DNA from: Radicibacter daui
GTDB taxonomy: Bacteria; Pseudomonadota; Alphaproteobacteria; Radicibacterales; Radicibacteraceae
Length of the DNA stretch: 64,000 nucleotides
Assembly: GCA_030657355.1 (NCBI GenBank)
Contig: CP131056.1
Coordinates: 186,001 to 250,000, forward strand
Direction: 5' to 3'
Positions 49,660 through 55,412 of the stretch are shown piece after piece (the stretch's first letter is position 1; each line of letters begins with the position of its first letter). The notes under the pieces are model-generated. The model saw only the letters and a list, made by a program, of their open reading frames with translations, was not told the DNA's origin and did not search any database. The position numbers and the translations under genes are program-made.

Positions 49660-49857
49660 TTACATGTCGAGCCCGATGTCGCGGCGCAGATGGGGGCTCA
49701 ACCCGTCAATCTCTGGCCGCCGCCGCGTGGGGCCTCTGGGCAAGGGGGGCGGTAACAGGCGGCTCAGCGCCCGGGTGAGCAGACTGCCCACAGAGCCATC
49801 GGCCATGGACCTGGTCGGAGTATCGCCGGAGTCGCGGTTGTAACGTACGGATATCAT
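49660..49857 (-). CDS. DUF1127 small protein
   Basis: This 65-residue basic protein ends in the DUF1127 motif LSPHLRRDIGLDM. The ATG at 49855-49857 follows AAAGGAAA as a ribosome-binding site. DUF1127 proteins in alphaproteobacteria are often small RNA-binding or stress-induced proteins; here an Arg/Pro-rich middle (PPPLPRGPTRRRPE) precedes the motif. It lies downstream of a noncoding region that also holds a small ORF. Confidence 0.88.
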   Translation of the reverse strand: MISVRYNRDSGDTPTRSMADGSVGSLLTRALSRLLPPPLPRGPTRRRPEIDGLSPHLRRDIGLDM

Positions 49858-50150
49858 GATCTTTTTCCTTTGGTAGATCACAGGTGGAAATATCCCGCCA
49901 TCGTCCGCAAGGACACAGAACGGGAGAGGATGGCGCCCGCCAGGCGGGCACCAATTCTGAAAGTGGGGGAAACGGACGTTCAGGCCGGAATCAGGATGGA
50001 AAGCGGACGCGCCGGAGGCCGCAAACGGTCTTTGAGAAGGCCGAAGGCGGAGTCGGGGCCAGCAAGCCCGCTGCATGCAGCCCAAAGGCTACAGCTCAGC
50101 GTGCAATAAAATCCTGATGTCGGAAGAACGGGTGAACCGCAGGGGCGTCG
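49858..50150. other. Intergenic region between DUF1127 gene and a small ORF
   Basis: There are 293 bases with no recognisable gene. GCCCGCC and GGCGGGC-type pairs occur at 49935-49955. I see no coding signal with a ribosome-binding site on either strand. It presumably carries the DUF1127 promoter. Confidence 0.4.
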
Positions 50151-50240
50151 TCAGTTGCAACGCGGCTGGCGGTGATGCTCCACGGCGTAACGGAAGCCAC
50201 GACGGGTAGCGGTGCGAAGAGTGGATCGCGAACCGGTCAT
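50151..50240 (-). CDS. Small Arg-rich ORF (29 aa) with strong ribosome-binding site
   Basis: A 29-codon ORF on the minus strand starts at ATG 50238-50240. It is preceded by GGAAGGAGG with an ideal six-base spacing, better than most annotated genes in this window. The peptide is strongly basic (MTGSRSTLRTATRRGFRYAV at the start, ending in HHRQPRCN) with six Arg and two His. No family is recognised. It follows a 54-base stem-loop. It could be a leader, an RNA- or membrane-interacting microprotein, or a chance ORF; the ribosome-binding site argues that it is translated. Confidence 0.55.
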   Translation of the reverse strand: MTGSRSTLRTATRRGFRYAVEHHRQPRCN

Positions 50241-50258
50241 ATGTGGCCTCCTTCCATT

Positions 50259-50312
50259 GTTATTCGCCGGAGAGAACTCCCCTGACGGGGACTCCGTTGT
50301 CCGGCGAGTAAC
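50259..50312 (-). promoter_or_regulatory. Stem-loop in the leader of the 29-aa ORF
   Basis: GTTATTCGCCGGA (50259-50271) pairs with TCCGGCGAGTAAC (50300-50312), 13 bp with one G-U pair. Inside the loop CTCCCC-tgac-GGGG forms a second short stem. It ends about 8 bases before the GGAAGGAGG site. Such placement suits control of translation. Confidence 0.5.
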
Positions 50313-50376
50313 GCCGAGAAATCCGCGCCGGGCAATATTGTTTCCCGGAACGCGATATATTTGAGAGCGTGTCTGT

Positions 50377-50404
50377 GGCATCCGGGCAACGCCTGCCGGA
50401 TGCC
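50377..50404 (-). terminator. Inverted repeat after mutS
   Basis: A perfect 9-bp stem, GGCATCCGG with CCGGATGCC, begins right after the mutS stop. It has no T run. Probable transcript end of mutS. Confidence 0.6.
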
Positions 50405-50410
50405 GTCAGG

Positions 50411-53089
50411 TCAGGTGGCGCCCGACATTTCCTTCAGCCGGTACAGCAGATCGAGCGCCTCGCGCGGAGTCAGCCGGTCGGGATCGGCGGTATCGAGCGC
50501 GTCCAGCACAGCGGCGCCTTGCGGCGGCAGGGCTGCCACCTTCGGTTCCGCCCGGACGGCGGCAAAGAGCGGCAGATCCTCGGCAAGACGCTCGACCGAC
50601 CGGGCCTGGTCGCCATTTTCCAGATGCGACAGCACCAGCTCCGCGCGGGAGACGACGGCCGAGGGCAACCCGGCGAGCCGGGCGACATGAATGCCGTAAG
50701 AGCGATCGGCCGTTCCCGGCGCTACCTCGTGCAGGAAGACCACCTGCCCCTGCCACTCCCGGATCTTCATGGTATGGCAGGACAGGCTGGAGAGCTTGCC
50801 GGCGAGCTGGGTCAGCTCGTGATAATGCGTGGCAAAGAGCCCGCGGCAACCAATACCCTCATGCAGATGCTCGACCGTGGCCCAGGCGATGGAAAGCCCG
50901 TCGAAGGTGGCCGTGCCACGGCCGATCTCGTCCAGGATGACCAGCGAGCGGGCACTGGCGCGGTTGAGGATCGCTGCCGTCTCGACCATCTCGACCATGA
51001 AGGTGGAGCGCCCGCGCGCCAGATCGTCCGCTGCCCCCACGCGGCTGAACAGCCGGTCGACGATGCCGATATGGGCGCTGTCGGCCGGTACGTAACTGCC
51101 GGCCTGCGCCATCAGGGCGATCAGGGCGTTCTGGCGCAGGAAGGTGGATTTACCGGCCATGTTGGGGCCGGTGATGAGCCACAGGCGCTGCTCTGCCGAC
51201 AGGTCACAGTCATTGGCGACAAAGGGAGTTTCTCCCCCCGCCTTCAGTGCCGGCTCCACCACCGGATGGCGCCCGCGCACGATGGTGAAGGCAAGACTGT
51301 CCTCCACCTGAGGGCGGCAGTAACCCTGCTCTTCGGCCAGTTCGGCGAGGGCGGAGACGGTGTCGGCCAGCGCCAGCGCCTGGGCCGCCGACATCAGCGC
51401 GCCGCGCTCATTGGCAACCAGATCCACCAGCTCGGCAAAAAGCTGCAACTCCAGCCCCAACGCCTTGCCGGCCGCCTCGGAGATGTTGCGTTCCAGATCG
51501 GCCAGTTCGGTAGTGGTAAAGCGCACCGCGCCGGCCATGGTCTGGCGGTGGATGAAGCGCTCGCGCATTTCCGGCTGCAACAGCCGGTCGCCATGCGCCT
51601 GCCCGACCTCGATGAAATAGCCGATGACGTTGTTATGCTTGATCTTGAGCGTGGAGATACCGGTCTCGCCGGCATAGGAAGCCTGCAACCCGGCAATCAC
51701 CCGGCGGGATTCGTCGCGCAGCTGGCGCAGCTCATCAAGGGCGCCGTTGTAACCGCTGGCGATAAAACCACCGTCCCTCGCCAGAAAGGGGGGCTCGGGT
51801 ACCAGAGCTTCTTCCAGCCGGCCCACCAGCGCCTCGAACCCGCCCAGCGCCGCAGCGGCGCCGGCCAGACCTTCAGGCAGCGGTGTCAAGCCAGCATCGG
51901 CGAGCAGCTCATTTCGAAGTTGCAACGCTATGTCGAGCGCCCGGCGAACACTCAGAAGATCATGCGGACCACCACGCCCGAGAGCCAGTCGCGAAAGCGC
52001 GCGCTCAAGGTCGGGCGCGCGCGACAGCAAGCTGCGCGCCGCCTCGCGGCGATGGGTCTCTTGGTAAAAATAACCCACCATGTCGAGCCGGGCATTGATC
52101 GCCGTAGCATCGGTAAGCGGGGCGGTTATCCAGCCGGACAGCAGGCGGGCACCGGCACCGGTACGGGTGCGGTCAATAGCGGAGAGCAGCGAGCCCTTGC
52201 GCTCACCGGAGAGCGTGCGGGTCAGCTCCAGATTACGCCGGGTCGCCGCGTCGATGTCCATCGAAGCGCCGCCTTCCGGTCGGCGCGGCGGCATCAGCGG
52301 CGGACGCTCCTGCCGCTGAGTCAGCGCCACGTAATCGGCAAGGGCTGACGCCGCCGCGATCTCTCCGCGGGAAAAATCACCAAAGGCATCGAGCGTGCCG
52401 ACGCCATAAATCGCGGCAAGCCGTTTGGCCCCGCCGACACTGTCGAAACGGGAGGGCGGCAGCACAGTGAGCGCCTGCTTCCATTCCGCTATCGCATCGA
52501 TAATTTCGTCCCGTTCGGCCAGCCGCTCGGAGATCAGCAGTTCCTGCGGCTCCAGCGCCGCAAGGGCGGCGGCCAACCGCTCGCGTGAATGGGCTTCGAG
52601 CAGGAAAGCGCCGGTGGAAAGATCGGTCCAGGCCAGCGCCAGCTCACCGCCGGCTTCCGCCAGCGCGACCAGATGATTGAAGCTGCGGGCATTAAGCAGG
52701 GAATCCTCGGTCAGTGTCCCCTGCGTGACGACCCGTACGACATCGCGCTTCACCACCGATTTGGAACCGCGCTTGCGCGCTTCGGCAGGGTCTTCCATCT
52801 GCTCGCACAGCGCGACGCGGAACCCCTGGCGGATCAGACGGGCAAGATATTGCTCATGGCTGTGCCAGGGCACACCGCACATCGGGATATCTTCGCCCAG
52901 ATGCTGGCCACGTTTGGTCAGCGCGATATCGAGCGCACCGGCCGCCTTGACCGCATCTTCGAAGAAGAGCTCGTAAAAATCGCCCATGCGGTAGAAGAGC
53001 AGGCAGTCGGGATACTGCTCCTTGATGCCGAGATATTGCTGCATCACCGGCGTTGCCTGCCGGAAACCTTCTGCCGCCTGCTCTGCCAT
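50411..53089 (-). CDS. mutS: DNA mismatch repair protein MutS
   Basis: MutS recognises mismatches and recruits MutL. The 892-residue protein has the mismatch-binding N-terminus with [11 protein letters not shown] (the Phe-x-Glu pair), connector and lever helices, and the ABC-type ATPase domain (about 610-800). That domain has Walker [14 protein letters not shown], the MutS signature and Walker [17 protein letters not shown], and [13 protein letters not shown]-type segment. The frame extends upstream to 53176, but [20 protein letters not shown] at ATG 53089 is the normal start. Confidence 0.97.
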
Positions 53090-53235
53090 ACCCTGCCCTG
53101 TGCCCCTCATCCCTTGCCGCGCCGCTCCGCTTCGCGGATCGGCCCCTGGAGCGCCCCCTAGCGCCGGGAGAGCCATGGTTATCAGGGGCGGCCCGGCAAG
53201 GTAAAGCCGGCTGAGGGCACGAGCGGGAGAAGCAG

Positions 53236-53745: not shown

Positions 53746-54024
53746 GGAAATATCCTTGAAATTCTTGGGTGAAAGGAGCCTCCCGACAGTCATGTCCGAA
53801 AGCTGCCTGCTGGGATTGAGGCCCCGCCCGGGACACGGGCAGGTGCAAAAGCGCCCCTGATCCGGGTTGGTTGCTGCCGGCGGGGCTAGCACGCCTCGGG
53901 GGCTGCGGTCACGGCCCAAATTTTGAGGCCCTGGTTAAGGATGGGGCTGATGGCGGTGCTTTCAACCACTTGCCGGAGAGCTGGCAGGGGCTTGACCGCC
54001 GGCTTTCACCGCTTCTAATCTGCC

Positions 54025-54090
54025 GGTGGTGCCGATTTGGGCCGACCGGCTTGCGGGGCACCCTGTTTGAAACATACCGCTAAAAGGTCG
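54025..54090 (+). ncRNA. SAM-II riboswitch (metA motif)
   Basis: GGTGCC (54028-54033) pairs with GGCACC (54057-54062). Between them is GATTTGGGCCGACCGGCTTGC and downstream CCGCTAAAAGG, the conserved SAM-II pattern (GATTTG, CCG..CGGCTTGC, GCTAAAAGG) that forms a pseudoknot. SAM-II riboswitches control methionine genes in alphaproteobacteria by binding S-adenosylmethionine. Here it lies about 125 bases before metZ. Confidence 0.88.
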
Positions 54091-54162
54091 GAGTCGCGTA
54101 AGCCACGCTCCCTCACCCGAGCCCGACTTTCCGTGACCCTGACCGGCCTTTGCCGCGGGTTT

Positions 54163-54197
54163 GGTCGCCCATAGCCCCGTGGGGCTACTCAAGGCGA
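54163..54197 (+). promoter_or_regulatory. Hairpin next to the metZ ribosome-binding site
   Basis: GTCGCC (54163-54168) pairs with GGCGAC, and TAGCCCC with GGGGCTA around GT inside it. It ends one or two bases before AGGAGAGAAGAAGG. It could be the expression platform of the riboswitch; no T run follows. Confidence 0.55.
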
Positions 54198-54215
54198 CAG
54201 GAGAGAAGAAGGATC

Positions 54216-55412
54216 ATGGCACGCGACAAGAAGCTTCCCGGCAATCTCGATCCCCGCACGCTGATGGTGCATGGCGGCACCCAGCGTTCCGGTTTTGACG
54301 AGACCAGCGAAGCCCTGTTCATGACCTCCGGCTATGTCTACGGCACAGCCGAGGAGGCCGAGGAAGCCTTCAAGACCGACGGCCTGCGCTACGTCTATTC
54401 GCGCTACCGCAACCCCACCGTCTCCATGTTCGAGGACCGGCTGGCTCTGCTGGAAGGCGCCAGCGGCTGCCAGGGTGCGGCAAGCGGCATGGCGGCGATG
54501 ACGCTGGCGCTGTTCGGCCTGACCAGGGCCGGTTCGCGCGTGGTGGCAAGCCGGGCGCTCTTTGGCTCCTGCCTTTATCTTATCACCGACATGCTGCCGC
54601 GTTACGGTGTCGAAACAGTTCTGGTCGACCCGGATGACCTCAATCAGTGGGCGGATGCCTTCAAGAAGCCGACCGATGTCGCCTTCCTTGAAACCCCGTC
54701 CAACCCGGGCCTTGTGCTGGCCGACCTGCCGGCGATCGCCAAACTTGCCCATGCCGCCGGTGCCAAGGTGGTGGTCGATAACGCCTTCGCCTCTCCGGTG
54801 CTGCAGAAGCCCCTGTCGATGGGCGCCGATGTGGTCGCCTACTCCACCACCAAGCATATCGATGGCCAGGGCCGCGCCATGGGCGGCGCCGTACTCTCCA
54901 ACGATCCGGAATTCTTCAAGGCGATCCAGCCCTTCGTGCGCCACACCGGCCCGTCGCTCTCGCCTTTCAATGCCTGGCTCATGCTGAAGGGGCTGGAGAC
55001 GCTCGACCTGCGCGTCAACGCCATGGCCGACAGCGCGCTTGAGGTTGCCACCTATCTGGAAAGCCACCCCAAGCTGCGCAAGGTCATGTATCCGGGTCTT
55101 GCCTCCCACCCGCAGCATGCCCTCGCCAAGGCACAGATGAAGAAGGGCGGCACCATGGTGGCGCTGCATCTGGAGGGCGGCAAGGAAGAGGCTTTCCGCC
55201 TGCTGAACGCCCTGAACGTCATCCCGATTTCCAACAATCTGGGTGATTCCAAGTCGTTGGCCACTCACCCGGCCACGACCACCCACCAACGCCTCAGCGA
55301 CGAGGAACGGGCGGCAGCCGGCATCCATCCGGGCACCATCCGCCTGTCCGTCGGTCTGGAAGCGGCTTCCGACCTCATCGCCGACCTCGATCAGGCGCTG
55401 AAGAAGGTCTGA
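54216..55412 (+). CDS. metZ: O-succinylhomoserine sulfhydrylase MetZ
   Basis: MetZ makes homocysteine from O-succinylhomoserine and sulfide in methionine synthesis, using PLP. The 398-residue Cys/Met-metabolism enzyme has SRYRNPTVSMFEDRLALLEG, the PLP-lysine AYSTTKHIDGQGRAMGG, and SNNLGDSKSLATHPATTTHQRL. The ATG at 54216 follows GGAGAGAAGAAGG; the frame is open upstream to 54150. Methionine regulation through the SAM-II riboswitch supports this call over cystathionine gamma-synthase. Confidence 0.93.
   Translation: MARDKKLPGNLDPRTLMVHGGTQRSGFDETSEALFMTSGYVYGTAEEAEEAFKTDGLRYVYSRYRNPTVSMFEDRLALLEGASGCQGAASGMAAMTLALFGLTRAGSRVVASRALFGSCLYLITDMLPRYGVETVLVDPDDLNQWADAFKKPTDVAFLETPSNPGLVLADLPAIAKLAHAAGAKVVVDNAFASPVLQKPLSMGADVVAYSTTKHIDGQGRAMGGAVLSNDPEFFKAIQPFVRHTGPSLSPFNAWLMLKGLETLDLRVNAMADSALEVATYLESHPKLRKVMYPGLASHPQHALAKAQMKKGGTMVALHLEGGKEEAFRLLNALNVIPISNNLGDSKSLATHPATTTHQRLSDEERAAAGIHPGTIRLSVGLEAASDLIADLDQALKKV

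What the first reader, a model, noticed from the sequence alone, without database searches (positions are those of the whole stretch)
50151..50313. A 29-residue Arg-rich ORF with a near-ideal ribosome-binding site behind a 13-bp stem-loop
The ORF is far below normal gene-calling length but has GGAAGGAGG at six bases from ATG, and a GTTATTCGCCGGA / TCCGGCGAGTAAC stem ends just upstream of that site. The stem holds a second inner hairpin. The placement resembles a structured 5' leader controlling a microprotein, or the reverse, a leader peptide. No known family comes to mind.
Basis: partly seen in the sequence, partly recalled or inferred. Interest (0 to 1): 0.6.

Follow-up and report, generated by a model that had tools for sequence, protein, structure and literature searches.

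The report
Highly translated 29-residue ORF before DUF1127-like gene
A tiny bacterial gene (29 amino acids), too short for ordinary gene finders, looks genuinely and strongly translated and probably acts either as a translation-sensing switch for the small gene behind it or as an abundant mini-protein; it is interesting but of a kind already known.

Summary
The ORF, Shine-Dalgarno (SD) and stem-loop exist as described, all on the minus strand: ORF 50240-50151, SD 50255-50247, stem 50312-50300/50271-50259. The SD alone is not beyond chance: about 3 ATGs per window would have one as good. The codon usage is: the ORF is written in ribosomal-protein codons exactly between its ATG and stop. It ranks first of 630 comparable frames, and none of 20,000 composition-only recodings reached it. 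I take it as a real, efficiently translated gene (about 0.85). No homologue was found in about 460 alphaproteobacterial genomes, but no relative from the same order is held, so conservation could not be tested. The stem is very stable (z = -5.6), but its link to the ORF is unproven; it could be a mutS terminator. The next ORF on that strand is a 65-aa DUF1127-like gene, 293 nt downstream across a C-rich, G-poor, rut-like gap with a terminator-like hairpin. This matches, in size and layout but not in tested function, the 29-aa uORF that attenuates duf1127_1 in Sinorhizobium meliloti. Best mechanism: a uORF sensing translation (about 0.4), nearly tied with an independent abundant Arg-rich microprotein (about 0.38).

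The parts
50151..50240 (-). 29-aa ORF MTGSRSTLRTATRRGFRYAVEHHRQPRCN (7 Arg of 29 residues)
   Evidence: Sequence; ribosomal-protein-like codons only inside the ORF: +0.32 per codon over base composition vs -0.88 upstream and -0.61 downstream in the same frame; first of 630 frames by the ribosomal-over-average measure
50247..50255 (-). Shine-Dalgarno GGAAGGAGG, 6-nt spacer
   Evidence: Sequence; 7-nt core AAGGAGG, not significant by itself
50259..50312 (-). Stem-loop directly before the SD: arms 50312-50300 and 50271-50259, inner hairpin, C.A mismatch in sense RNA
   Evidence: Fold -32.2 kcal/mol, z -5.55
50377..50404 (-). Hairpin just after the mutS stop, likely mutS terminator (no U tract)
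   Evidence: Fold, z -3.83
49858..50150 (-). Untranslated gap, C-rich and G-poor, rut-like
   Evidence: Peak C-minus-G fraction 0.218 over 78 nt, top 0.5% of the window; first 45 nt after the stop 36% C, 20% G
49931..49953 (-). 10-bp terminator-like hairpin followed by a pyrimidine-rich tail, between the 29-aa ORF and the DUF1127-like ORF
   Evidence: Fold -20 kcal/mol, z -3.78
49660..49857 (-). 65-aa ORF with a DUF1127-like C-terminus (LSPHLRRDIGLDM), SD AAGGA
   Evidence: Pfam PF06568 11.5 bits, E 0.27, below the 23.3-bit cut-off; codon usage close to that of the least codon-adapted DUF1127 paralogues of this genome
49614..49644 (-). Strong hairpin after the DUF1127-like ORF, probable end of the unit
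50411..53176 (-). mutS, upstream neighbour on the same strand
   Evidence: Pfam MutS I-V

Best explanation
The 29-aa ORF is a real, efficiently translated small ORF (about 0.85 for this step alone). Most likely it is the upstream ORF (uORF) of the DUF1127-like gene. Ribosomes that initiate and move quickly through the optimally coded ORF leave a C-rich stretch of the ORF and the C-rich, G-poor gap behind it free, so that transcription ends before the DUF1127-like gene, through Rho or at the 10-bp hairpin. When initiation is slow or ribosomes are scarce, the RNA is covered or folded differently and transcription reads through. The 5' stem-loop would insulate the strong SD and protect the mRNA 5' end. 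Shown: ORF, SD, stem, codon usage, gap composition, hairpins, gene order. Inferred: translation itself, one common transcript, termination in the gap, any regulation, any role of the stem.
For: Codon usage matches ribosomal proteins only inside the ORF. The downstream ORF carries a DUF1127-like C-terminus. The gap is in the top 0.5% for C over G, and the first 45 nt after the stop are 36% C, 20% G, against 38% C, 18% G in the functional element of S. meliloti. A terminator-like hairpin lies in the gap. Published analogue: S. meliloti duf1127_1 is attenuated through a 29-aa, strongly translated uORF whose RBS can pair with its early codons (PMC12218461). In the predicted fold here the SD core pairs with codons 14-17 once about 16 codons are transcribed.
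Against: The DUF1127 match is below the curated threshold. SD-to-codon pairing is matched by 8% of random synonymous recodings and lies later in the ORF than in S. meliloti. Optimised codons suit a protein needed in quantity at least as well as a cis-acting uORF. No conservation data. No promoter found. None of the other DUF1127 loci examined, in this genome or in named relatives, showed a convincing similar uORF. Twenty-three other stretches of the window have larger C-over-G bubbles.
Confidence: 0.4

Rival explanations
1. An independent, abundant, lineage-restricted Arg-rich microprotein with its own structured leader, acting in trans (for example on RNA or ribosomes). The hairpin in the gap ends its mRNA.
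For: Ribosomal-protein-like codons, 7 Arg of 29 residues, strong SD, stem immediately upstream, terminator-like hairpin downstream. Two DUF1127 paralogues of this genome are also highly codon-adapted, so the strain probably does make abundant small basic proteins.
Against: No homologue in 385 class genomes or in the 82 genomes of the nearest order found, no family match, no solved relative. No close relatives are held, so a young or fast-changing protein cannot be excluded.
Confidence: 0.38
2. The stem-loop is a second terminator hairpin of mutS and has nothing to do with the 29-aa ORF just behind it. (This concerns the stem only and can be true together with either reading of the ORF.)
For: It ends about 150 nt after the mutS stop; hairpins this stable are frequent within 120 nt after genes in this window (16 of 56). 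There is a first hairpin right after mutS.
Against: No U tract; it ends 3 nt before the SD; no corresponding 60-nt stretch before 55 other window ORFs is as stable. It does not explain the codon usage of the ORF.
Confidence: 0.3
3. The ORF is spurious: a chance ATG with a chance SD in intergenic DNA.
For: ATGs with a 7-nt SD are expected about 3 times per window; no homologues.
Against: 0 of 20,000 composition-only recodings reach its codon score; all other frames and both flanks in frame score negative. Most other frames that score as high are in-frame tails of ribosomal or other genes.
Confidence: 0.12

Closest known systems
Sinorhizobium meliloti sORF26 / duf1127_1 uORF attenuator (PMC12218461; sORF26 first listed in PMC10117765)
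   Same: 29-aa uORF, strongly translated, upstream of a DUF1127 gene on the same strand; a C-rich, G-poor stretch after the stop (38% C/18% G there, 36%/20% here); predicted pairing of the SD with uORF codons.
   Different: Published uORF residues C11, A15, T17 are A11, G15, R17 here; gap 293 nt vs about 159 nt; a large stem-loop precedes the SD here; the DUF1127 match here is sub-threshold; no expression data.
CruR / bp2923 uORF of Bordetella pertussis (DUF2946; PMC9426467)
   Same: uORF with a rut site and Rho-dependent termination before the next gene.
   Different: 145 aa with CXXC and RAPP motifs, senses copper; this peptide has neither motif (one Cys only).
CcaF1 and other small Arg-rich DUF1127 proteins of Alphaproteobacteria (PMC10253847, PMC12501420)
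   Same: Very small, basic, Arg-rich protein; a DUF1127-like ORF is next door.
   Different: The 29-aa peptide itself has no DUF1127 match.

Membership tests
uORF-controlled DUF1127 attenuator (S. meliloti duf1127_1 type) | Translated uORF of about 29 codons upstream on the same strand | tested here: met
   29 codons, ribosomal-protein-like codon usage; translation itself is inferred
uORF-controlled DUF1127 attenuator (S. meliloti duf1127_1 type) | Downstream gene is DUF1127 | tested here: inconclusive
   PF06568 11.5 bits, cut-off 23.3
uORF-controlled DUF1127 attenuator (S. meliloti duf1127_1 type) | C-rich, G-poor (rut-like) element after the uORF | tested here: met
   Top 0.5% of 78-nt windows; composition only, function untested
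uORF-controlled DUF1127 attenuator (S. [quoted passage not shown]
   Predicted pairing is with codons 14-17 and matched by 8% of synonymous variants
uORF-controlled DUF1127 attenuator (S. meliloti duf1127_1 type) | Termination in the gap, relieved by translation inhibitors | not testable with these tools
   Needs RNA data
DUF1127 protein family (the 29-aa peptide itself) | Match to PF06568 | tested here: not met
   No Pfam match at E 0.1
CruR / DUF2946 uORF | CXXC and RAPP motifs | tested here: not met
   Peptide sequence
Known Rfam leader or riboswitch | Covariance-model match over 50151-50313 | tested here: not met
   No gathering-level match; only Atu_C7 at 14.6 bits vs 45 required, mostly downstream of the ORF

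The most novel reading that the evidence does not exclude
A lineage-restricted, very abundant 29-residue Arg-rich protein with its own stem-loop leader, working in trans on ribosomes or RNA, in an alphaproteobacterial order with no other genome held here.
Probability: 0.3. Interest if true: 0.5.

Novelty: new member of a known kind. Interest (0 to 1): 0.36.

Why it matters
Genes this short escape gene callers and databases. Here codon usage alone argues for strong translation of a 29-codon ORF. If it is a uORF, translation-sensing control of DUF1127-type genes would reach beyond Rhizobiales with a different peptide and leader, suggesting that the wiring rather than the sequence is kept. If it is a free microprotein, it is an abundant orphan.

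Tried and rejected
Peptide homology: own genome, 58 and 385 class genomes, the 82 genomes of the nearest order found, plasmids, phages, PDB, a degenerate DNA pattern in viral contigs: nothing beyond chance hits that lack a matching start or contain stops. Stem arm as a dispersed genomic repeat: the count equals the reversed-pattern control; the 281-nt region has no second copy. Covariance model of the leader from the single sequence: only itself, plus two short terminator-like hairpins in one genome that share the inner CCCCGUCAGGGG. A conserved small ORF downstream of mutS in relatives: none. SD sequestration by codons 14-17: not significant. Atu_C7 sRNA: far below threshold. Homologues of the 65-aa DUF1127-like ORF: only weak hits, mostly with internal stops. 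Amino-acid attenuator for Arg: the seven Arg codons are mostly the preferred CGT/CGC, scattered, and no Arg gene follows. I could not obtain the S. meliloti sORF26 sequence.

Full report
OBSERVATION. The ORF, SD and stem are all present on the minus strand. The ORF runs from ATG 50240 to TGA 50151. GGAAGGAGG is at 50255-50247. The stem arms are 50312-50300 and 50271-50259. In the sense RNA the fifth pair is C.A, so the outer helix is 4+8 bp with an inner 3+5 bp hairpin. The 60-nt element folds at -32.2 kcal/mol, z -5.55, 0 of 200 shuffles as stable. The longer 106-nt leader, including the start region, is only z -2.15.

IS THE ORF REAL? An SD as good as this stands before about 3 chance ATGs per 64 kb, and three are found, so the SD alone proves nothing. 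I built codon tables from twelve ribosomal-protein genes of the same genome and from the long ORFs of the window. Per codon, the log ratio of ribosomal-protein usage over base composition is +0.32 in the ORF; over average-gene usage it is +0.23. Among 630 ATG frames of 22-45 codons in 96 kb, the ORF ranks first for the second measure and sixth for the first. Most of the others that score as high are in-frame tails of ribosomal or other genes. In the same frame the score is -0.88 upstream of the ATG and -0.61 downstream of the stop, and all other frames are negative. None of 20,000 composition-only recodings reaches it; average-gene recoding reaches the second measure in 0.02%. The coding signal therefore begins at this ATG and ends at this stop, and it is of the highly expressed type. 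This is the strongest result here. Translation itself remains inferred.

CONSERVATION. The peptide was found only in its own genome, not in 58 or 385 genomes of the class, nor in the 82 genomes of the order that is nearest by MutS. At E <= 0.01 per genome one chance hit with an internal stop appeared in the 385 genomes, no more than chance predicts. The own order has no other genome held, and the nearest MutS relatives are at 66% identity, with unrelated DNA downstream of mutS. The finding's refuting test, loss in close relatives, thus cannot be run. A covariance model of the leader finds only itself and two terminator-like hairpins in one genome that share the inner loop.

SURROUNDINGS. Upstream on the same strand is mutS, with a hairpin right behind its stop. 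Downstream, after a gap of 293 nt, lies a 65-aa ORF that ends in LSPHLRRDIGLDM, a DUF1127-like C-terminus. Pfam gives 11.5 bits, E 0.27, below the 23.3 cut-off. Its codon usage is poor, but some true DUF1127 paralogues in this genome are nearly as poor. A strong hairpin follows it, then a sulfatase-modifying-factor-like gene. The gap is rich in C and poor in G: its best 78-nt stretch is in the top 0.5% of the window on both strands, although 23 other regions of the window have a larger bubble. It contains a 10-bp hairpin with a pyrimidine-rich tail at 49953-49931, z -3.78.

MECHANISM. In S. meliloti the DUF1127 gene most induced by tetracycline is preceded by a 29-aa, strongly translated uORF. 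Translation of its first half leads to premature termination between uORF and gene, probably by Rho, and needs a 45-nt element of 38% C and 18% G behind the uORF. Blocking initiation relieves termination, and the RNA rather than the peptide matters (PMC12218461). The locus here has the same order, the same uORF length and a similar composition behind the stop (36% C, 20% G). It differs in the peptide, the longer gap, the stem before the SD, and the absence of significant SD pairing with early codons. I therefore say it probably works like that system, at 0.4, without filing it as a member: one feature was tested and not met and one was inconclusive. The close rival is an independent abundant microprotein (0.38), which explains the optimised codons more directly. 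The rival that the stem is a mutS terminator concerns the stem only and does not exclude the others.

THE STEM. No corresponding 60-nt stretch before 55 other window ORFs is as stable, but such hairpins are common behind genes. Its position, 3 nt before the SD, favours a leader; the C.A mismatch in the sense strand and the nearby mutS end do not. No promoter was recognised, so whether the stem is in the ORF's mRNA is open.

VERDICT. A real, probably strongly translated sORF that gene callers would miss, of a known kind (uORF or microprotein). The idea that the stem controls it is untested.

Noticed in passing
54019-54103 (+): SAM-alpha riboswitch (Rfam RF00521, 37.8 bits, gathering 36) before a methionine-biosynthesis-type PLP gene at 54150-55412 (identified from its translation only).
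   Followed up: no
L203 (own genome C1:2840800-2842900): Two tandem, nearly identical 73-aa DUF1127 genes with AAGGAG SDs and ribosomal-protein-like codon usage, so probably abundant proteins.
   Followed up: partly
37269 (+), 42 codons: Small ORF MTAFSLPAIMVPMFIVTFSIFFFLIWSIQRHTDLKVEDAFRS with gene-like codon usage: a possible small membrane protein, or the tail of a longer one.
   Followed up: no
upstream of DUF1127 genes in L179, L187, L191, L193, L214, L216: A conserved stretch AGAAACATTCGTTGGACTGATCAAT roughly 130-180 nt before the DUF1127 start in Rhizobiales-type genomes; looks like a shared promoter or operator.
   Followed up: no
L145, 13-91 and 198-270: A stretch repeated about 185 nt apart, containing an AAAAAAGTCCCCGTCAGGGGATTTTTTT terminator-like hairpin.
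   Followed up: no
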